From the NCBI GenBank assembly GCA_025358085.1, contig JANYKT010000035.1, positions 1 through 61,656 on the forward strand: a stretch of DNA of 61,656 nucleotides, read 5' to 3'. Of the stretch, positions 7,983-59,957 are shown one piece after another; position 1 is the stretch's first letter, and every line of letters begins with the position of its first letter. The notes beneath the pieces were generated by a model. That model was not told the origin of the DNA and did not search any database. It saw nothing but the letters and a program-made list of their open reading frames with translations. This stretch comes from Deltaproteobacteria bacterium. Its GTDB lineage: Bacteria > Myxococcota > Myxococcia > Myxococcales > 40CM-4-68-19. Made by a program: the position numbers and the translations under genes.

Positions 7983-9203
7983 CTAGAACAGCTCTTTGAA
8001 GAAGCCCACGAACTTGTCCCGCAAAGACGCATTGTCGCCCGAGCGCAGAAAGGCTTTCCCGCCCTGTCGCGCGCCGTAGAGCAAGAGGCCGACGGCGGTG
8101 GCGTGCTGCGGGCTGCCGACCACGTCGGTGAGCCCGCCAATCCCCCGCGGAAGGCCGCGCCGCACCGGCAGCCCGAGCACCTCTTCGGCAAGCTCCGGCA
8201 TGCCGTGCAGCAGCGTCGATCCGCCGGTCAGCACCAGGCCCGAGGCGAGCAGGTCCTCCTGCCCGGCCTTCTGGATCTCGCGGTGCACCAATTGAAAGAG
8301 TTCTTCGACCCGCGGCTCGACGATCTCGCAGAGGATGCGCCGCGAGAGCACGCGCGGCGGACGGCCACCCACGCTCGGCACCTCGACGGTCTCGTCCTTG
8401 TCCAGCATGGCCGCCTGGGCGCTGCCGAAGCGAACCTTGATTCTCTCGGCCTCGTGCATCGGCGTGCGCAGGCCGACCGCGATGTCATTGGTCAAATGAT
8501 TGCCGCCCAGCGGAATCACACTCGTATGCTGGATGGCGCCATTGCTGAAGATCACCAGGTCGGTCGTGCCTCCGCCGATATCAACCAGCGCCACGCCCAA
8601 TTCCTTCTCTTCTTCTGCCAGCACCGCTTCGGCCGAGGCGAGCGGCTCCAGCACGACATCGAGGACCGTGAGTCCAGTCCGGGCGCAGCACTTGATGATG
8701 TTCTGCGCCGACGAGACCGCGGCCGTGACGATGTGGACCTTGGCCTCCAGCCGCACGCCATTCATGCCCAGCGGCTCGCGGATGCCGTCCTGCTCATCAA
8801 TGATGTACTCCTGCGGCAGCACGTGCAGGATCTCGCGGTCCTGCGGAATGTTGATGGCGCGCGCGGCGTCCAGCACGCGCGCGATGTCGCCGGCGCGAAC
8901 CTCCTTGTCCTTGATCGCGACCACGCCGTGCGAATTGAAGCCGCGGATATGTCCGCCCGCGATACCGGCATACACCGCGCTTATTTCCACGCCGGCCATC
9001 AACTCAGCCTCTTCGACGGCCCGGCGTATCGAGGCGACGGTGGCCTCGATATTGATGACGACACCTTTCCGCAGCCCGCGCGACGGGTGCGTTCCGATGC
9101 CGATCACGTCGATGCCGTCAGGAGTGACCTCGCCGACGATGCAGCAAATCTTCGTGGTGCCGATGTCCAGGCCGACGACGATTTCACCCTTCTTTTGCGC
9201 CAT
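7983..9203 (-). CDS. ftsA: Cell division protein FtsA
   Basis: FtsA is the actin-like ATPase that anchors FtsZ to the membrane. The 406-residue protein has the phosphate-1 motif (VVGLDIGTTKICCIVG), the phosphate-2 motif (VDIGGGTTDLVIF) and the adenosine motif (VLTGGSTLLHGM). It ends in an amphipathic helix (LRDKFVGFFKELF), the membrane-targeting sequence of the family. The ATG lies three bases after the ftsQ stop with an AGAGG element upstream. Length and order (ftsQ-ftsA-ftsZ) are typical. Confidence 0.98.
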   Translation of the reverse strand: MAQKKGEIVVGLDIGTTKICCIVGEVTPDGIDVIGIGTHPSRGLRKGVVINIEATVASIRRAVEEAELMAGVEISAVYAGIAGGHIRGFNSHGVVAIKDKEVRAGDIARVLDAARAINIPQDREILHVLPQEYIIDEQDGIREPLGMNGVRLEAKVHIVTAAVSSAQNIIKCCARTGLTVLDVVLEPLASAEAVLAEEEKELGVALVDIGGGTTDLVIFSNGAIQHTSVIPLGGNHLTNDIAVGLRTPMHEAERIKVRFGSAQAAMLDKDETVEVPSVGGRPPRVLSRRILCEIVEPRVEELFQLVHREIQKAGQEDLLASGLVLTGGSTLLHGMPELAEEVLGLPVRRGLPRGIGGLTDVVGSPQHATAVGLLLYGARQGGKAFLRSGDNASLRDKFVGFFKELF

Positions 9204-9206
9204 TGA

Positions 9207-10061
9207 TTACCTCTGGGAGGTCAGTTGTGCAGAGACCCACTCGGGGCGGCTCTGGTTGTCCAAATCGATGCGTGCGGCGCGCTCGCCGCGGCGTGCAAGG
9301 GCGGCGCGCACCTGCGAAAGTTTGTGCAGCTTCAAAGGAAAGTCGGCGCTGCCGAGGCGGATCTCCTGCACCGCTTCATCGAGGCGCGCGAAGAGCGTGG
9401 CTCCGCCGCCGTCCAGACGCAGCTCGGAGAGCGAAGCAATCGAGTAGCCTTCGGCTTTCCAGGCATCGAGAAGCTGAAGCGAGAGTGCCAGTCGTAGAGT
9501 GGTCTCGGGCTTGCCCAGGTCCTCGCGCGCAAGGCCGGTGACGACGGGCAGGTCGACGCCGTCGGCCGGCGCCTTGCGCTTGAAGAGCTGTCCCTGATCG
9601 TCGAGCAGATACAGACCGCCGAGTTGGACCAGCAACACCGCGCGGTGCTCGACCACGCTCGCGATCACCCGGGACGGCAGGCGCCGCTCGAGTCGTGCCG
9701 AGGCGACCCAGGGCTGCGCTTCAATGGCCTTGCTGGCGCGCGCGAGATCGGCGTGGAAGAGGTTCTCGCCGATGCTGAGCCCGCTGCGCCGCAACAGCTC
9801 GGCCTCGGTCGAGTGCTCGAGGCCGACAAAGCGGATCTCGGTGATGGCGAAGAGCGGCGCGCTGGTGGCCCACCGCCAGGCCTGCCAGGCGCCGGCGCTC
9901 ACCCCGGCACTGAGGGCCACCGCGAGGCCAGTGCGCGCGAAGGCTTGCAGGAGCGCGCCCGGTTTGCGCTCGCTGCGCCGCAGCGCCGCCTTGGATTCGG
10001 CGCGAAAAGGCACGCGCTCTGCTTTCGCAGCCCGGACGTCCTGCACGGAATCGACGCTCAT
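9207..10061 (-). CDS. ftsQ: Cell division protein FtsQ
   Basis: The 284-residue bitopic protein has a basic cytoplasmic N-terminus of about 45 residues and one membrane segment. A POTRA domain follows (FAITEIRFVGLEHSTEAELLRR) and then the FtsQ/DivIB beta domain. FtsQ links the FtsB-FtsL pair to the septal synthase in the periplasm. Its ATG overlaps the murB stop as ATGA, indicating translational coupling. No ddl gene is inserted between murB and ftsQ, unlike the enterobacterial order. Confidence 0.93.
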   Translation of the reverse strand: MSVDSVQDVRAAKAERVPFRAESKAALRRSERKPGALLQAFARTGLAVALSAGVSAGAWQAWRWATSAPLFAITEIRFVGLEHSTEAELLRRSGLSIGENLFHADLARASKAIEAQPWVASARLERRLPSRVIASVVEHRAVLLVQLGGLYLLDDQGQLFKRKAPADGVDLPVVTGLAREDLGKPETTLRLALSLQLLDAWKAEGYSIASLSELRLDGGGATLFARLDEAVQEIRLGSADFPLKLHKLSQVRAALARRGERAARIDLDNQSRPEWVSAQLTSQR

Positions 10062-11077
10062 GGCCGCACCTCGGCGCTGAGAAGAACGGGCAGCAGGTGG
10101 TGCGGCGCAAGGTCGGGCGGCAGCGCCGGCGTGAAGGTGCCGACCAGCCGGACTTCGGGCACGAGTTCGATGCCGGTCGCGGCGCGCACCGTCTTGCGCG
10201 CGAGCGAGATCAGATCGATCACGTCGCTTGCCCGCGCCTCGCCCAGGTTGACGATGAAGTTGGCGTGCTTGTCGCTGATCTGCGCCCCGCCCCGGCGCGC
10301 GCCCTTGAGGCCCGCCTGCTCGACCAAGCGGCCGGCGAAGTCTCCCCGCGGGTTGACGAAGACGGAGCCGGAGTTGGGCAGCGTGAGCGGCTGCGCAACG
10401 CGGCGGCGCTCGACGTCCACCTTGGCCAGGCGCACCTGCTCGAGCAGTTCGGAGTCGGTCCCACGGCGCACCTTGCAGCGGGCGCGGGTCAGCACCGTGC
10501 CACGGGGCAGCTCGCAGTGGCGATAGGCCAGATGCAACTCTGTTGCATCTACCCAGCGCAGGCCGGACGGCGTCGCGACTTCGATGGCCATTACATGATC
10601 GGCCATGCAGCCCGACGGGGTGCCCGCGTTCATCGCCACCATGCCGCCGACGGTGCCGGGGATGCCGGCCATCCAGGCGACGCCGACCCCGCGCTGCTCC
10701 CGGGCCAGCGCAAGAAACCGCGCATTGAGCAGGCCGGCGCCGAGCGTGAGCACGACGTGGTCCGGGTGACCTTCAAGCTCCTCGGGACAAAAGTCGCGGC
10801 CGAGCAAAAGTGCCGCGCCCTCGAGCCCGCCGTCGCCCACGATGGTGTTGGCGCCGCCGCCGAGCACGTGCCAGCCGATGCCCGCGTCGCTGAGCACGCC
10901 CAGCACCGCGACCAGCGCGGCCGGGTCTTTCGGCTTGATCAGGAAGCTCGCCGGCCCGCCCACGCGCATGCTGGTGCGGCCTGCGAGCGGCGCGCCTTCC
11001 AGCACCTCGCCGCGCGCAGCCTCGCGCAGCAGGTCGAGCACGCCGCGAGCGTTGCCGTCTGGCGCGAGCGCGGTCAT
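10058..11077 (-). CDS. murB: UDP-N-acetylenolpyruvoylglucosamine reductase
   Basis: MurB reduces the enolpyruvyl group of UDP-GlcNAc-enolpyruvate to give UDP-MurNAc, using FAD and NADPH. The 339-residue protein has the FAD-binding stretches [10 protein letters not shown] and [10 protein letters not shown], then GIPGTVGG and the C-terminal NSGSVF and HANFIVN motifs. The ATG at 11075-11077 overlaps the murC stop as ATGA. A longer frame reading back through murC in another register was rejected. It lies between murC and ftsQ in the dcw cluster. Confidence 0.96.
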
Positions 11078-12450
11078 GGCAAAAGCTCCAGCAATTCGTC
11101 GGCCGCGTGGGTGATGTCCCCGGCTCCGAGCGTGAGCACCAGGTCGCCCTCGCGCACGCGCTCGCGCAGGCGGGCCGCGAGCTCGGCGCGCTCGGGCACG
11201 AAGCTCGCGTCGCGATGGCCGCAGGCGCGCACCGCCTCGTGCAGGCGCGCGCCCGAGACGCCGGCAATCGGCTCCTCGCCCGCCGGATAGATCTCGGTGA
11301 GCAGCAGCACGTCGGCGTCGTTGAAGGCAGTGGCGAAGTCGCCCAGCAGATCGCGCGTGCGCGTGTAGCGGTGCGCCTGGAACGCGCAGACGATGCGGCG
11401 GAGCGGGAACGACGCGCGCGCGCCCGCAAGCGTGGCTTTGATCTCCGCGGGGTGGTGCCCGTAGTCGTCGACCACGGTGATGCCGCCCTTCTCGCCCCGG
11501 ACGGTGAAGCGGCGCTGGACGCCGGCGAACTCGCGCAGCGCCTCGACCGTCTTCTCGAAGGGGATCTCCAGCTCGTGCGCCACCGCGCAGGTCGCGAGTG
11601 CATTGAGCACGTTGTGCGCGCCCACCATCTTGAGCGTGACCTCGCCCTTGACGATGCTGCGGTGCGTGACGTCGAAGGTCGAGGTGAAAGCGGAGAGGCG
11701 GACATGCTCGGCCCGCCAGTCGGCCTGGGGCGAGAATCCGTAGGTCACATGGCGCTTGGTCAGCCGCGGGATCAGGTGCTGCACCACCGGATGATCGAGG
11801 CACAGCACCGCAAGGCCGTAGAAGGGCACGCGGTCGGCGAAGTCGACGAAGGCCTGCTGCAGCGCCTCGAGGGTGCCGTAATGGTCGAGGTGCTCGGCGT
11901 CGATGTTGGTGATCACCGCGATGGTCGGTGACAGGCGCAGGAACGATCCGTCGGACTCGTCAGCTTCGACCACCATCAGCTGGCCCTTGCCGAGCTTCGC
12001 GTTCGAGCCGAGCGCGTTGAGCTTGCCTCCCACCACCACGGTCGGGTCGAGCCCGGCGTGCGCGACGACTGTGGCGATGAGCGAGGTGGTGGTGGTCTTC
12101 CCGTGCGAGCCGCCGATAGCGACGCCCTCTTTCAGGCGCATCAGCTCAGCCAGCATTTCGGCGCGCGGGATCACCGGGATGGCCCGGTCGCGCGCGGCGG
12201 TCACTTCCGGATTGCTGCGCTTGACCGCGCTGGAGGTGACCACCACGTCCACGTCCGGCGCGACATTTTCGGCCTGGTGCCCGATGGCGATGGCACCGCC
12301 CAGGCTTTGCAGCCGGCGGGTGGTGTCGGTGGCCTTGAGGTCGGATCCGGTCACGCCATAGCCGAGGTTCAGGAGGAGCTCGGCAATGCCGCTCATCCCG
12401 ATTCCGCCGATGCCGACGAAGTGGACTTTGACCTTCTTGTTCCTGAACAC
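11074..12450 (-). CDS. murC: UDP-N-acetylmuramate--L-alanine ligase
   Basis: MurC adds the first amino acid, L-alanine, to UDP-MurNAc using ATP. The 458-residue product starts with the UDP-binding loop [15 protein letters not shown] and has the Mur-ligase P-loop GSHGKTTTT and [12 protein letters not shown]. The start is GTG at 12448-12450, eight bases after GGAGGG. The 102-base gap before it, after murG, is the widest inside the cluster apart from the region behind mraZ. The end overlaps murB. Confidence 0.97.
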
Positions 12451-53169: not shown

Positions 53170-54582
53170 TCAATTCGCATCGTCGGGCAGAGCGCCCGCC
53201 GTCAGCTCGCCGGCCGCAAGCAGGCGCGGGGCGCTCTCGATGGGCGAGAGCGACTCGAGCTCGAGATTTTCCGGCGTTGCCTCCAGGTCGCGGAACTTGC
53301 GCGCGCTCACCAGCACCCGCCGCTCGAGCGACCCCACCGCCGCGTTGTAAGCCTCGACCGAGCTGCCCAGCGACTTGCCCACGCGCGCCAGGTGACCCGC
53401 CATGTCGGCCAGGCGCTTGTAAAGCTCGCGACCCAGCGCGCTGATGGCCTGGGCGTTGCGCGCGAGCGACTCCTGCCGCCAGCCATACGCGACAGCGCGC
53501 AGCAGCGCGATCAACGTGGTGGGCGTCGCGAGCATGACCCGCTCCTGCACGCCCGCTTCGATGAGCGCGGGGTCATGCTCGAGAGCGGCGGTGAGCATCG
53601 CCTCGTTGGGGAGAAAGAGAATGACGAACTCGGGCGCGGGCTCGAACTGCTCCCAATACGCTTTGCGCGAGAGCGCGGCCATGTGCTGCCTGATCTGCCG
53701 CGCGTGGTCCACCAGCCGGTCGCGGCGCGCGTCTTCGTCAGGAGCATCAATGGCACTCAGGTATGCCTGCAGCGGAGCCTTGGCATCCACCACGACGTTC
53801 TTTCCTCCGGGCAGCTTCACGACCAGGTCCGGCCGCAGCGAGCCGTCCTCGGTGCGCGCGGTGGGCTGCTCCTGAAAGTCGCAGTGCTCGAGCATGCCCG
53901 CCATCTCGCAGACCCGCTTGAGCTGGATCTCTCCCCAGCGGCCGCGCACCGAGGGCGCGCGCAACGCCTGCGACAACTTGCCGGTCTCGGACAGGAGCGA
54001 GCCGATCTGCTGGCTGAGCGAGGCATACGCTCCCGTGCGCGCCGTCTCAAGGTCTCGAAGCTTGCCGTCCACCTTGTCGAGCGAGTCGCGCACCGGCCGC
54101 ACCAGCTCGATGATGGCCTGCTGGCGCTTTTCGAGATCGCCGCGGGCCCCCTCCTGGAAACGCGCCAACGACTCGCTGGCGAGCTGGAGGAACTGGTCGT
54201 TGTTGCTCTGCAGCGCCTTTTTAGAGAGGGCGTCGAAGGCGTCGCACAACTTCTTTTGCGAGCCTTCAATCAGCGCCAGTTTTTCCGTCGCGGATCTGCG
54301 CTCGTGCTCCAGCTGCGCCGCCGCTGCGCTGCGCTCGTGCTCCAGTTGCACCGTCGCAGCGTGGCGTTCGTGCTCCACCTGCGCCTGCAACGCGGCCCGT
54401 ACCGCGCGCGCATCGATGAGTTCTCGCTGGTCGAGCCGCAAAGGCACGAGTTCGCGTTCTCGCTCGTCGAGACGCAAGGCGAGGAGCGCCGAACGACCGC
54501 GCGCGACGGCCAGCGCGTAGAGCGCGCTGAACAGACCCGCGGCCAAGGCGATGAACAACGATGCGGCGATGAACGTGGTCAA
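53170..54582 (-). CDS. rmuC: RmuC-family protein (DNA recombination limiting)
   Basis: The 470-residue protein has one N-terminal membrane segment, a long coiled coil (about 40-200), and the RmuC core with VRGRWGEIQLKRVCEMAGM, DLVVKLPGGKNVVVDAKAPLQAYL and EFVILFLPNEAMLTAALE. That core is related to restriction-type nuclease folds. E. coli RmuC limits inversions at short inverted repeats. The start is a TTG at 54580-54582, overlapping the methyltransferase stop, with GGGGGAA upstream. The coiled coil contains three exact-length 11-residue repeats around EHERxAA. Confidence 0.92.
   Translation of the reverse strand: MTTFIAASLFIALAAGLFSALYALAVARGRSALLALRLDERERELVPLRLDQRELIDARAVRAALQAQVEHERHAATVQLEHERSAAAAQLEHERRSATEKLALIEGSQKKLCDAFDALSKKALQSNNDQFLQLASESLARFQEGARGDLEKRQQAIIELVRPVRDSLDKVDGKLRDLETARTGAYASLSQQIGSLLSETGKLSQALRAPSVRGRWGEIQLKRVCEMAGMLEHCDFQEQPTARTEDGSLRPDLVVKLPGGKNVVVDAKAPLQAYLSAIDAPDEDARRDRLVDHARQIRQHMAALSRKAYWEQFEPAPEFVILFLPNEAMLTAALEHDPALIEAGVQERVMLATPTTLIALLRAVAYGWRQESLARNAQAISALGRELYKRLADMAGHLARVGKSLGSSVEAYNAAVGSLERRVLVSARKFRDLEATPENLELESLSPIESAPRLLAAGELTAGALPDDAN
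54298..54396 (-). repeat. 33-bp tandem repeat in the rmuC coiled coil
   Basis: Three consecutive units of exactly 33 bases (starting at 54298, 54331 and 54364) encode the pattern QLEHERSAAAA. The unit keeps the coiled-coil register of 11 residues (three turns). Confidence 0.75.
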
Positions 54583-56459
54583 TGCGGTTCCCCCAGGTTT
54601 CCAGCGACGCCCACGACCCTCGCACGGGGGTCTGACATGGCAGGGTGAAGCCGCTGACGTTCCTCGAGAAACCTCGTTCCCCAGAAGCCGCGCTCGGCCT
54701 CGTCCACCAGCTCCTCCGGAAGTTCGAAAGCGCGATACACGAGCGTGTCGATGGCCCGCTCCAGCGCTGCATCGCCCGATGCGGCGCGCTTTTGCGTCAG
54801 CCGCGCCAGGGGCCGCGCGTCCTCGAGTAGCGAGCGCGGCACCGGCAAATCGCGCAGGAGGGCCGGCTTCACGTTCACGTCGGTGGTTCGCAGCCGATGG
54901 TAGCGGTTTAAAGCCACTGAGCTGACCAGACCCAAGAGCGCCCAGAGCCGATCTACGTCGGTGCAGAAGAGCGTCGAGATCGAGTCGAGGCAGACCAGTT
55001 CGCGCGGCACCATGGCCGCCTCGAGCCATCGCGCCCAGGGCGCTTGCGCATTGGTCCGGATGCGCTGGATTGCGACGCGCTCGCGCCCGAGCTGCCGCTC
55101 GATCAACCTCGACAGCGGCCCTTCGTCGCACAGCGTCTTCGGCTTCCATCGCAGAGCAAACGGCAGGATGTCTTCGCCGCCCACGAGGCCGATTTCGCCG
55201 CGCTCCGGGGGCCGGCGCTCGACGTGGCGGGGGTTGTTGCCGGTCCGCATCCCGTAGCCGACCTCGCACAGGTCGCCGAGCGGGACCGAGGCCGCTTCCA
55301 TGGCCATCATCAGGGTACGCTCCGCGTTGCTGCGGTAGACCTGCCAGCCGCGGCGAGCAGTCTGCTGGAGTTCGTCCCGGCTGACCGTTGCCAGCACCTC
55401 GCGATGGCGTCCTACGAAGGTGGCGCGCGCCCGGCCCGCCGGTCTTCGCACCAGCACCAGTGCCTGCACGCGAGTATCTTTCGCAGCCGCGAACGGCTTT
55501 CCCAGATCGACGATCGCAGCCACCTCGGCCGCCTCCAGAACGGCCGCGCGGATGGACCCCGAGCGCGCGTTGCTCATCCAGGTGTCGGGGACCAGCAGGG
55601 CCGCGGTGCCACCCGGCCGGACCAGCGCGGTCGCGCGCAGCACGCAAGCGGTGTAGCGATCGATCTCGCCGCCGCGCAGCGAGGGGAAGAGTAATGCCAG
55701 AGCGACGCGCTCCTGCGGGTCGTCGAGATGTCCGTACGGCGGATTGGAGACGAGCAGGTCGGCGAGCGGCGGCGAGTCACGCAGCGAATCGCCACGGGAA
55801 AAGCTGGCGTCGAGGACTCCTTCGAGTGCGAGGGCGGCACGGGCGACGCGGAGCGCGTCGGCATCGAGATCCATGGCGGCAGAGCGGCGAAGTCCGGCGC
55901 GCGCTGCCGCCACCAGGAAGGCCCCCGCGCCCGCGCATGGGTCGAGCACGAGCGGAATGTCAGACCGCTTTGCTAAGCCTTTTTCCAGCGAAGGCGGGTC
56001 GCTTTCGCCAAGGGGACGGTCACGATGGATGCGTTCGCTCTCGCCTTTGATTCGTTCGCGCGCAAGCGCAGCGCGGATCTGTTTGCCGCTGATGCTGCCG
56101 TGTTGAAGCGACAGCGCCACCACCCGGTCGGCGATTTCGCGCGGTGTGTAATAGACGCCCGCGCGCCGCCGCCCCTGCGCACCCAGACGTTGCCCGACGA
56201 GGATCTCGGCCGCTTCGGTGAGCGAGTCATCGTCGACCGTGCATTCCGCGAGGGGCTGTCTTTGCGGCAAGGGCCAGGGCGGCAGCGCGCCCGATGTGCA
56301 AAGGTTTAGCGTGCGCGCGGCGGCGAGGACGTCGCTCCAGTTCCGCAGGCGCCCCGTCAGCCCGCGCCGCTCGGCGACGCGCAGCGCGATGAGGGAGAGC
56401 GCGCCGTGCGCTCCGCATTCTTGCGCCAGCGCGAGCAGGGGCTCGCGTGCGGTGGTCAT
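54579..56459 (-). CDS. Orphan N6-adenine DNA methyltransferase
   Basis: The 626-residue protein has GVYYTPREIADRVV, the SAM-binding motif I (LDPCAGAGAFLVAA) and motif IV Asn239-Pro-Pro-Tyr242, typical of gamma-class adenine methylases. The C-terminal half (about 380-580) resembles the target-recognition region of TaqI-like enzymes (GYGMRTGNN, RLIERQLGRERVAIQRI). No endonuclease motif or separate restriction gene is visible, so it may be a solitary regulatory methylase or a decayed restriction system. It is coupled to rmuC by a TTGA overlap. Confidence 0.87.
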   Translation of the reverse strand: MTTAREPLLALAQECGAHGALSLIALRVAERRGLTGRLRNWSDVLAAARTLNLCTSGALPPWPLPQRQPLAECTVDDDSLTEAAEILVGQRLGAQGRRRAGVYYTPREIADRVVALSLQHGSISGKQIRAALARERIKGESERIHRDRPLGESDPPSLEKGLAKRSDIPLVLDPCAGAGAFLVAAARAGLRRSAAMDLDADALRVARAALALEGVLDASFSRGDSLRDSPPLADLLVSNPPYGHLDDPQERVALALLFPSLRGGEIDRYTACVLRATALVRPGGTAALLVPDTWMSNARSGSIRAAVLEAAEVAAIVDLGKPFAAAKDTRVQALVLVRRPAGRARATFVGRHREVLATVSRDELQQTARRGWQVYRSNAERTLMMAMEAASVPLGDLCEVGYGMRTGNNPRHVERRPPERGEIGLVGGEDILPFALRWKPKTLCDEGPLSRLIERQLGRERVAIQRIRTNAQAPWARWLEAAMVPRELVCLDSISTLFCTDVDRLWALLGLVSSVALNRYHRLRTTDVNVKPALLRDLPVPRSLLEDARPLARLTQKRAASGDAALERAIDTLVYRAFELPEELVDEAERGFWGTRFLEERQRLHPAMSDPRARVVGVAGNLGEPH

Positions 56460-56569: not shown

Positions 56570-57214
56570 TTAAGGGCGCGGGAACGCCTTGCGGTTCTGC
56601 TCCAGCAGCTTCGCCAGCTCGTCAGCAGGGAGCTCGCGCGCCCCACCGAGTGCGCGGGCGTGATGGAGAATCTTGGCAAGATGTTCCACCAGTTCCATGC
56701 GCAGGTACGCGAGCGCGAGCTCCGGGGCGATGGTGAGGACGCCGTTTCCCGGCAGCAACATCGAGTCCCAGTCCGACGCGCAGCGGGCCACGGCCTCGGT
56801 CGCGAGTGGCGTCTTCGGCAGCGCAAACGGCGCTGTCGGGACACGGCCGAGCGAGACCACCGCCTCAGGCAGGCAGACTGGCTCGAGCGGCACGCCCGCC
56901 GCGCCGAACGCGGTCGCATAGGGCGGGTGCGCATGAATGACGGCGTGCACGTCCGGCCGCACGCGGTACGCGGCGAGGTGCAGCTCCATCTCTCCAGGCG
57001 GCTTGCGCGTTCCTTCAAGGACTTTGCCGGCGCCGTCGACGACGACCAGCATACTTTCTTGCACCTCGAGCTTGGAGGTCGCGGTCGGCGTGATCAAGAA
57101 CCGGTCGCGCCCGAGCCGCACCGAGACGTTCCCGTCGTGGTTCGCGACCCAGCCGGCCGCATGCAGGCGTCGCGAGATCTGCGCGACGTTCGCGCGCGCC
57201 ATCGGGGAAATCAT
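56570..57214 (-). CDS. Class II aldolase (fuculose-phosphate-aldolase type)
   Basis: The enzyme class performs zinc-dependent retro-aldol cleavage of sugar phosphates to dihydroxyacetone phosphate and an aldehyde. The 214-residue protein has GNVSVRL (substrate loop), ITPTATSK and [11 protein letters not shown] with the catalytic glutamate. His94 and His96 in HAHPP are zinc ligands, with a third probably at His178. The ATG overlaps the stop of the upstream EutN/CcmL-type gene, so it is made with the two shell-vertex proteins. Aldolases of this class are cargo of known fucose/rhamnose microcompartments. The substrate here is unproven. Confidence 0.87.
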
Positions 57215-57492
57215 CCCGTTGCCACCTGATCGACAACACCGACGATGCAGGAGCGGATGGGCAGCTTCGCGGTCGCCGGCATGCCGAAGAGCTGGCGGAT
57301 GCCGGTGCCCTCTCGCAGCACCAACACCGTGTCCCCGGTGCCCGCCTGCGCGACTCGGTCAACGGCGAGGAAGCTCCTGCCGGTGTGCGCGCCCTGCTCG
57401 TCCACCGGCTGCACCACCAGCAGTTTGAGACCAGCAAACGCGGGGTGCTTTTCGGTCGAGACGACCGGCCCCAGGACCTTGCACAGAATCAA
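57211..57492 (-). CDS. EutN/CcmL-type microcompartment vertex protein (BMC-P), second copy
   Basis: The 93-residue protein follows the pentameric vertex family along its full length: [49 protein letters not shown] and a C-terminal IVGVVDQV. The TTG start at 57490-57492 overlaps the stop of the first copy. It also overlaps the aldolase start by four bases, so three genes are translationally linked. It differs from its neighbour enough to suggest a heteromeric or two-type vertex set. No BMC-H or BMC-T shell gene is in the window. Confidence 0.87.
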
Positions 57493-57752
57493 GCGTGCAC
57501 CGAATCGACGATGCCCACCACGGCCGCGTCCACCGGCACGAAGCTTGGTTCCAGAGCCAGCGCGGCCTCGCGCGAGCCGACCAGGAACACCAGATCGCCG
57601 CTGCCGGCGCGGACCGTGTCCACCGCGACCTCCACGGGCCCGACTGGCACCTGCGCGTGATCGAGCGGCTGCACCAGCAGCAGCCTCTTGCCCACGAGAC
57701 CTTCGCATTTCTGCTCGGCCACCACCGTGCCCACCACCCTGCCAAGATACAT
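57489..57752 (-). CDS. EutN/CcmL-type microcompartment vertex protein (BMC-P), first copy
   Basis: The 87-residue protein has the vertex-family pattern [53 protein letters not shown] and [13 protein letters not shown]. Such proteins form pentamers that cap the twelve corners of bacterial microcompartments. GGAGAG precedes the ATG and the start lies three bases after the stop of the GltJ-like gene, so all may share one transcript. Confidence 0.9.
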
Positions 57753-57755
57753 TCG

Positions 57756-59957
57756 CTACTCTCCTGCCGTGACGACGATGGGGATGTCCACCTCGAACGC
57801 CGCACCCTGGAACGAAGGAAAGACGATGCGGCGCGTGGCGCGCTTGAGGCAGGTGCCCAGCAGACTCTGGTCGACCGTCTGCTTGTCGATCTTTGCGGCC
57901 GTCACGCTGCCCGACGGCGCGATGGTGGTGGCGATGTGGATCTTGCCAACCCGCAAATTTGGCTCGCGACGCAGCGCTTCGTCGATGCAGCCCTGTAGCG
58001 CGCCCTTGCTCTGACCGAGCTTCTTGCGGACGTCGGCGGCGGTGAGTCCAACCTCTAACTTCTCGACGTTCGGCGTACCGGCGGCCGGTGCGGCACTGGG
58101 ACCATCGGTCCCCCTGCCGCGCTCGTTCGCAAGGTTCTTTGGATCCGCCTGCTGATCGGAAGTGAGCGCGTCAGGCTTCTTCGTTGCTGGCCGGTTGCCT
58201 CCCTTGTCGTCCGAGGCCAGCGTTCCCCCAGCTTTCGCCGCCAGCGCGGCGACGGCCGGGTCGCCTGCTCCGGCGGACGGCGCCTGCGGTGTGCCGGCGT
58301 CGACGGGCTTCCCTGACTCGCTCGCAACTCTCGCACGTGACGTCAGGTCGCTCGAAAGAGCCCAGAGAAGCACTCCACCGACCAGCAGCGCGCCAATGAT
58401 GAGAGCGATCAAGAGGGGAGTCCGGCTTCGCTGCACTCCGGCGAAGACAAGCACCTCACCGGTGCGATCGATCTTCGGCTTCTCCGGCGGGAGAGCCGCG
58501 GAATCGGCCGCGTGCCAGGAGGGGTCAGCTCGGGAACCGAACTTGGCCGGCGCGGGGCTTGACGGCCGCTGTTTGCCGATCTCGGAGCTTACCCAGCGAG
58601 CCAACTCGAGCGCGCTCTGGCCCGGGTTCTCGCCCGAACTGAACAGCTCCGCGGCGACTCGCTCCTGGTGGACCCTCTCGCCTTGCGGCAACTGGTCGAC
58701 ATCGGTGGTGTGGTCGTCCTGACTGGCCAGCGGAACGGAGCGAAGCGGCTGGTCGCCGCCGGGTGCGGGCGTGAGCGTCTGGCCGGCCTGGGGCCTCGCC
58801 GCGGAGTTCCAGAAAGGCCCCGCGGGCAGGCCCGGGGCAGCCTGCGCCGCGCTGCCCGGGGCCGATGACCCGGTGCCTGCCGGCGCGGGCCCGCCAAGCG
58901 CTGGCCCGAATTGTTCATGCCCCGCTGGCGCCGCAGCGGACGGTGCGAGAGCAGCCGGTGGAGTCCTCGAAGGTCGACCTGCGGAAGAGGGATCACCGTA
59001 TGGGGAGGGTCGAAGCGCCGCGGTCCCCGCTGCTGCCGCGGCCGGTTTCGTCGCGCCAGGAACTGGTCCGGCGGCAACCGGCCCGCCCGGTTCAGCAGCG
59101 CCGGCCGGACGCCCTGCCGCGGGCGCCGAGCTTTTGCCAGCACCCGACGCGCTCCCGGCGCGCTCGGAGGCGACCCGGGCTTCCCGCTCGCTGGAAGGGT
59201 CGATGAATCCGAAGGTCTGCACGGGGAATCCACGATTGGCTGGAGCCGGGCCCGCCGCGGGAACCGGCGGGTCCGGTTGGGGCGCGCCCTGCGCCACGAC
59301 CTCCGCAGCGACCTCCGCCACATCCTTGGCGCGCGTCCACGCTGCCATTCCGTCTTTCCAGAGATAAGTTCGCGGGCCCACGGCGCCCTGCGCGATCTTG
59401 AGAGCAATCTCGGCGCGGGTCGCCGGCCCGGTCTGCTTCCCACCCAGCATCGCGAACCAGACTGGCAAGTCGCGCTGCGGCGCCGGGTCGCGCGACGGTG
59501 CCGCGGGTCGCAACGAATCTTTTCCCGGAGCGCGCGGGGCCTGCGCCGCTGCCCCGCCCGGAGAAGTCGGTGCCGGCGCTTCCTCGCGTTTTGAGGCTTG
59601 CAGCGCCTTCTCGAGCATATCGCTGTCCATGGCGCGCGTGCTCTCGGTGTCGCTGTCCCTCTCGCTCTCATCCTCGGCAGCCGATCGCGTTGCGACGAGC
59701 GGCTGCAGCGCAGCCCTGTCCGGCGCGCGCGGCGCCCCCGGCTCTGCCTTCGTAGCGAGCCTCGCCACCGGCTCCAGCTTCAACTCCACCGCCGGCTCCG
59801 ACCTCGGCGACGCCCGTACCGCATGCGCGCCGAGACCCGGGTCGGAGATGGTGATCTTCGCTCCGCACTTCTTGCAGCGCACGATCAGCCGCTTACCGCG
59901 GACCTTTTCGTCGGCGATCTGCAGCATGGCCTTGCAGCTGTCGCAAACGAATTGCAT
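57756..59957 (-). CDS. GltJ/AgmX-like protein: zinc ribbon, GYF, membrane segment, AgmX C-domain
   Basis: The 733-residue protein begins with an MJ0042-type zinc ribbon ([18 protein letters not shown], then CKKCG). A GYF-2-like domain is at about 160-220 ([38 protein letters not shown]). A disordered Pro/Ala-rich region of about 250 residues, one membrane span near 525-547 and a C-terminal AgmX/TonB-like domain follow ([31 protein letters not shown]). This order matches GltJ (AgmX) of the Myxococcus gliding machine, where the ribbon and GYF domains meet cytoplasmic polarity proteins. No other glt gene is nearby, so it may be a paralogue. Confidence 0.85.

What the first reader, a model, noticed from the sequence alone, without database searches (positions are those of the whole stretch)
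56570..57752. Two coupled microcompartment vertex proteins plus a class II aldolase, without hexameric shell genes
Seen: two different EutN/CcmL-family genes overlap each other and the aldolase by four bases (TTGA and ATGA junctions). Known: vertex pentamers normally close shells made mostly of BMC-H and BMC-T proteins, and class II aldolases are cargo in fucose/rhamnose-type microcompartments. Inference: this could be a satellite of a shell locus elsewhere in the genome, a remnant, or a shell-less assembly of vertex proteins with an aldolase. The last would be new.
Basis: partly seen in the sequence, partly recalled or inferred. Interest (0 to 1): 0.75.

Follow-up and report, generated by a model that had tools for sequence, protein, structure and literature searches.

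The report
Satellite of a Haliangium-type microcompartment locus
These three genes are the detached, already catalogued satellite piece of an ordinary bacterial protein-shell organelle whose main shell genes lie elsewhere in the same genome; the only unexpected detail is that the accompanying aldolase has an asparagine where such enzymes normally hold their metal with a third histidine.

Summary
Two different EutN/CcmL (BMC-P) genes and a class II aldolase overlap head to tail by four bases at 56570-57752, minus strand. But the genome does have hexamer genes: contig C66 carries BMC-T, BMC-H, BMC-P, a CoA-acylating aldehyde dehydrogenase with an encapsulation-peptide-like N-terminus, and a second BMC-T; its BMC-H, first BMC-T and BMC-P match the Haliangium ochraceum shell best. 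Of 127 genomes of the order, all 33 with BMC-P also have BMC-H/T domains, and the BMC-type aldolase occurs in 30 of these 33 and in none of the other 94. Three BMC-less genomes of the same family keep the satellite's flanking genes with nothing between them. The three BMC-P genes correspond one to one to the triplet of loci that hold everything together. Sutter et al. [quoted passage not shown] Not found described: the aldolase's third metal-binding His is Asn in all sampled sequences of the window's clade and in other lineages, with companion changes G156, G104 and P116, usually without a C-terminal encapsulation peptide. Ordinary finding, one testable enzyme oddity.

The parts
57489..57752 (-). 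BMC-P vertex protein A (EutN/CcmL family, 87 aa); ortholog of the second BMC-P of type II HO loci
   Evidence: Pfam PF03319 E=4.7e-26; PDB 4i7a E=7e-16; Foldseek EutN/CcmL; tree
57211..57492 (-). BMC-P vertex protein B (EutN/CcmL family, 93 aa, TTG start overlapping the stop of A); ortholog of the third BMC-P of type II HO loci
   Evidence: Pfam PF03319 E=1.5e-20; PDB 2hd3 E=9e-11; Foldseek CcmL/EutN; tree
56570..57214 (-). Class II (FucA-like) aldolase, 214 aa, with E75, H94, H96 kept and Asn157 in place of the third metal His; no C-terminal encapsulation peptide
   Evidence: Pfam PF00596 E=5.9e-41; residue-level alignment to solved FucA; family alignments
57756..59957 (-). Upstream neighbour in the same direction, ending 3 bases before BMC-P A: MJ0042 zinc ribbon, GYF domain, AgmX/PglI C-terminal domain (GltJ-like)
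   Evidence: Pfam, NCBIfam; adjacency conserved in most relatives and kept in genomes without the BMC, so a neighbour rather than part of the module
54579..56459 (-). Downstream neighbour: N6-adenine DNA methyltransferase-like gene; marks the other edge of the module
   Evidence: Pfam PF02384; adjacent to the GltJ-like gene in BMC-less relatives

Best explanation
The three genes are the satellite locus of a type I HO (Haliangium ochraceum-type) bacterial microcompartment. Shown: the main locus (BMC-T, BMC-H, BMC-P, aldehyde dehydrogenase, BMC-T) is on another contig of the same genome, and main locus and satellite are present or absent together across the order. Inferred from the family: the main-locus BMC-H and BMC-T proteins build the facets, the three different BMC-P proteins (one from the main locus, two from here) cap the vertices of one shell, and the aldolase splits a sugar or sugar-phosphate-like substrate into an aldehyde that the encapsulated CoA-acylating aldehyde dehydrogenase oxidises. 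The true substrate of the HO BMC is unknown. Because this aldolase has Asn instead of the third metal His and has no encapsulation peptide, whether it still does a FucA-type cleavage, and whether it sits inside the shell, is open. The confidence given is for the satellite identity; for the aldolase-to-dehydrogenase step I would say about 0.6.
For: PF00936 x4 and a third PF03319 on contig C66. BMC-H best native match is H. ochraceum HO-5815 (5djb, 158 bits), first BMC-T best match is HO-5816 (260 bits), main BMC-P best match is the H. ochraceum 5v74 pentamer chain (114 bits). In sampled relatives the order T1-H-P-AldDH-T2 (main) and P-P-aldolase (satellite) is conserved on separate contigs. 33 of 33 order genomes with PF03319 also have PF00936; BMC-type aldolase in 30 of the 33 and in none of the other 94. 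Seven loci carry a BMC-P triplet, BMC-H/T, AldDH and aldolase together; the main BMC-P and the satellite pair group with the first, second and third triplet members. Three BMC-less genomes of the same family show flank next to flank without the module. The published description is the same in content.
Against: No physical linkage: the genome is a 217-contig assembly (completeness 98%, contamination 3%), so main locus and satellite are joined only by binning and by co-occurrence in relatives. The catalytic step is inferred; the third metal ligand is replaced and an encapsulation peptide is absent in this aldolase, and three BMC-bearing relatives (G001, G007, G011; the last 61% complete) gave no BMC-type aldolase.
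Confidence: 0.93

Rival explanations
1. A shell-less assembly: the two vertex proteins form pentamers on their own and scaffold or cap the aldolase, without BMC-H/T proteins.
For: The three genes overlap and stand alone in the window; in the order they appear apart from the main locus wherever both were seen.
Against: A full shell locus is in the same genome. Among 127 genomes of the order none has PF03319 without PF00936. The pair's orthologs are part of complete loci elsewhere.
Confidence: 0.02
2. A decaying remnant of a lost microcompartment.
For: Loss of the third metal ligand and of the C-terminal encapsulation peptide in the aldolase; aldolase missing beside the pair in G001.
Against: Frames intact and conserved across families (BMC-P A 64-82%, B 57-82%, aldolase 54-76% identical); E75, H94, H96 kept; the main locus is intact; the Asn comes with a set of companion residues rather than scattered damage.
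Confidence: 0.03
3. Part of a second, separate microcompartment rather than of the C66 locus.
For: Physically separate; no direct linkage in this assembly.
Against: All PF00936 matches of the genome, with a single BMC-H gene, are on C66; a single BMC-P triplet is split between the two loci, and its members correspond to those of type II loci.
Confidence: 0.02

Closest known systems
Type I HO BMC satellite locus (Sutter et al. 2021, PMC8217296)
   Same: Two BMC-P genes with an aldolase, distant from a main locus; BMC-P triplet; reported from Myxobacteria among others.
   Different: Nothing in architecture. The passages of the main text that I read do not mention the His-to-Asn change or the lack of an encapsulation peptide in these aldolases (supplementary data could not be read).
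Haliangium ochraceum BMC shell (PDB 5v74, 5djb, 6mzx)
   Same: Main-locus BMC-H, first BMC-T and BMC-P best match these chains.
   Different: Satellite BMC-P A and B are other paralogs: they match the solved H. ochraceum pentamer chain no better than other EutN/CcmL pentamers.
[quoted passage not shown]
   Same: Same family by sequence; the Glu (E75) and two metal His (H94, H96) are kept.
   Different: Third metal His (FucA H155) is Asn157; the residues aligned with FucA's phosphate-binding loops differ (ANHDGN for GTAGN, PPGE for PSSE).
ACI-type BMC of Acidobacteria
   Same: Class II aldolase with a BMC-P triplet (PMC8217296).
   Different: There the aldolase is in the main locus with a C-terminal encapsulation peptide and the AldDH is on the satellite.

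Membership tests
EutN/CcmL (BMC-P) vertex proteins | PF03319 domain over the whole protein | tested here: met
   Both over the cut-off, positions 1-83 and 3-83 of 83; matches to solved pentamers
EutN/CcmL (BMC-P) vertex proteins | Assembles as pentamer | not testable with these tools
   Needs purified protein
HO-type BMC, type I | Main locus with BMC-H, BMC-T, BMC-P and AldDH | tested here: met
   Contig C66; best PDB matches to H. ochraceum shell chains
HO-type BMC, type I | BMC-P triplet, members from different clades | tested here: met
   Three separate ortholog groups shared with the triplets of loci that hold everything
HO-type BMC, type I | Satellite with two BMC-P and an aldolase, apart from the main locus | tested here: met
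   41 of 81 aldolase loci examined have a vertex pair and no other BMC gene within reach
HO-type BMC, type I | Same shell-protein subclades as in the 2021 catalogue | not tested
   The catalogue's own HMMs and supplementary trees were not available
Class II aldolase (FucA-like, PF00596) | Aldolase_II domain | tested here: met
   140.8 bits, cut-off 22.2
Class II aldolase (FucA-like, PF00596) | His triad binding the metal | tested here: not met
   H94 and H96 kept, third His replaced by Asn157
BMC cargo enzyme (aldolase) | Encapsulation peptide on the aldolase | tested here: not met
   The window protein has only 10 residues from position 205 on; the relative in G018 and most His-type aldolases have a linker plus amphipathic helix. 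Cargo can also enter without one, so this does not exclude encapsulation.
BMC cargo enzyme (AldDH) | Encapsulation peptide on the AldDH | tested here: met
   N-terminal amphipathic helix IDQLVDKVVDRLR followed by a linker, conserved in relatives

The most novel reading that the evidence does not exclude
In the HO-type microcompartments of this order the class II aldolase has switched to a different active site: Asn157 replaces the third metal-binding His together with G156, G104 and P116, a set that arose more than once in the family, and the enzyme has mostly lost its encapsulation peptide. It may therefore use another metal or reaction, or act outside the shell or as a structural partner of the co-translated vertex proteins.
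Probability: 0.35. Interest if true: 0.45.

Novelty: new member of a known kind. Interest (0 to 1): 0.18.

Why it matters
The HO BMC shell is a main structural model of microcompartments, yet its function is unknown. Showing that this pair plus aldolase is present or absent with the shell ties the aldolase to that function in about 30 genomes, and the recurrent change at its metal site gives a concrete handle on which reaction the organelle carries out. It does not change the picture of how shells are built.

Tried and rejected
Shell-less assembly: rejected by PF00936 on contig C66 and the 33-of-33 co-occurrence. Remnant: rejected by conservation and intact frames. Functional tie to the GltJ-like upstream gene: considered because of the 3-base gap and conserved adjacency, but the gene stays in place in relatives without the BMC, so it looks like a neighbour. 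Haliangium ochraceum's own satellite could not be read: the accession I tried is not in the annotated collections, a locus-tag search found only one paper, naming Hoch_5814, and the species was not among the 80 loci returned by the genome scan. A search for a paper on the FucA metal ligands found none directly on FucA, but one on a related enzyme that describes the His triad. The His-to-Asn change as simple decay: not favoured, because companion residues change with it in separate lineages. Caveat: the changed column was itself one of the 203 columns of the tree on which I counted changes.

Full report
Observation. BMC-P A runs 57489-57752; BMC-P B runs 57211-57492 from a TTG start that overlaps A's TGA (TTGA); the aldolase runs 56570-57214 and its ATG overlaps B's TGA (ATGA). 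Pfam names them EutN_CcmL (E=4.7e-26, 1.5e-20) and Aldolase_II (E=5.9e-41). Both vertex proteins resemble solved pentamers by sequence and by predicted fold (model A is of moderate confidence, so for A the sequence match is the stronger evidence).

The rest of the genome. The window is contig C105 of a 5.42 Mb, 217-contig assembly. PF00936 gives four matches, all on contig C66, and PF03319 gives a third vertex gene there. Reading that contig in the direction of transcription: a BMC-T (L008:12609-13295), BMC-H (within 11490-11936), BMC-P (within 11027-11629), a CoA-acylating-type aldehyde dehydrogenase (9548-11023) and a second BMC-T (8963-9544). The BMC-H best native match is H. ochraceum HO-5815 (5djb; only an engineered tandem BMC-H fusion, 6ner, scores higher), the first BMC-T best match is HO-5816 (5v74), and the BMC-P best match is the pentamer chain of the same H. 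ochraceum shell. The second BMC-T is PduT-like, with H. ochraceum shell chain 5dih among its hits. The dehydrogenase scores far above the cut-off of the BMC-type aldehyde dehydrogenase subfamily PRK15398 and starts with an amphipathic helix and linker like an encapsulation peptide, conserved in relatives.

Relatives. I fetched satellite and main loci of relatives with BMC genes. In most, the pair plus aldolase sits next to a GltJ-like gene, often with an N6-methyltransferase gene on the other side, and T1-H-P-AldDH-T2 sits on another contig. G001 has the pair without the aldolase; G012 and G109 have the aldolase about 6 and 22 kb away.

Co-inheritance. Over 127 genomes of the order, 33 have PF03319 and all 33 have PF00936 (one, G126, only BMC-T-type matches); two more genomes have only a weak PF00936 match. 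A strong match to the BMC-type aldolase (at least 264 bits; the best lesser match is 199 bits) occurs in 30 of the 33 and in none of the other 94. In G002, G004 and G008, same family but without any BMC gene found, the GltJ-like gene and the methyltransferase gene are direct neighbours with no vertex or aldolase gene between them. Satellite and main locus are therefore present or absent together.

Type I versus type II. A scan of genome contigs with the aldolase alignment gave 80 loci (more existed than were kept). Of these plus one own-genome paralog, 41 have a vertex pair only, and seven have three vertex genes with BMC-H/T and aldehyde dehydrogenase. In a tree of 76 vertex proteins the main-locus vertex goes with the first, satellite A with the second, and B with the third member of these triplets (few columns, but the three-way split is well supported).

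What is less expected: the aldolase. In E. coli FucA three His bind the metal, and the triad is kept even in the Fe(II) dioxygenase POD of the same fold (PMC11841055). Aligned to solved FucA chains, the window protein keeps Glu75, His94 and His96 but has Asn157 where FucA has H155. Among 82 aligned sequences 50 have His and 32 Asn. All 21 sequences of the window's clade in the tree have Asn. The tree needs four changes between the states, at least two of them forced by well-supported branches, so the state changed repeatedly (the column itself was in the alignment, one of 203). Within the clade of 61 sequences around the Myxococcota, Asn157 comes with Gly156 (32 of 32, against 1 of 29), Gly104 (30 of 32, against 0 of 29) and Pro116 (30 of 32, against 6 of 29). 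These companions suggest a tuned change rather than decay. The C-terminal extension found in most His-type aldolases (24 of 29) is absent in the window and in 22 of 32 Asn-type ones, but present in G018 of the same order. I could not inspect coordinates, so whether Asn157 or the invariant His26 completes the metal site is unknown.

Mechanism. Shown: gene content, overlapping frames, co-inheritance, orthology, conserved residues. Inferred from the family: that the three vertex proteins cap one shell, that the dehydrogenase is inside, and that the aldolase feeds it an aldehyde. Sutter et al. suggest catabolism of nucleic acid-derived compounds for HO BMCs; nothing here tests that.

Verdict. A well-preserved satellite of an HO-type microcompartment: ordinary in kind, with one small, testable enzyme oddity.

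Noticed in passing
window 57756-59957: A GltJ-like protein (MJ0042 zinc ribbon, GYF domain, AgmX/PglI C-terminal domain) ends 3 bases before the vertex pair; the adjacency is conserved in much of the order, and the gene stays in place in relatives without the BMC.
   Followed up: partly
L143, L144, L145: Empty sites: three relatives without any BMC gene have the flanking GltJ-like and N6-methyltransferase genes side by side, so the 1.2 kb module was gained or lost cleanly.
   Followed up: yes
window 56570-57214, residue 157 of the aldolase: Recurrent replacement of the third metal His by Asn with co-varying Gly156, Gly104 and Pro116 in HO-type BMC aldolases.
   Followed up: partly
L037:2027-2899: The aldolase of G018 carries a long C-terminal linker with helices resembling an encapsulation peptide, unlike its close relatives, while keeping Asn at the metal site.
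   Followed up: partly
G003:C41, G013:C121, G123:C12 and others: Several relatives have an additional PF00936 gene on a further contig, in some with two domains, possibly a second satellite BMC-T; none was found in the window's genome.
   Followed up: no
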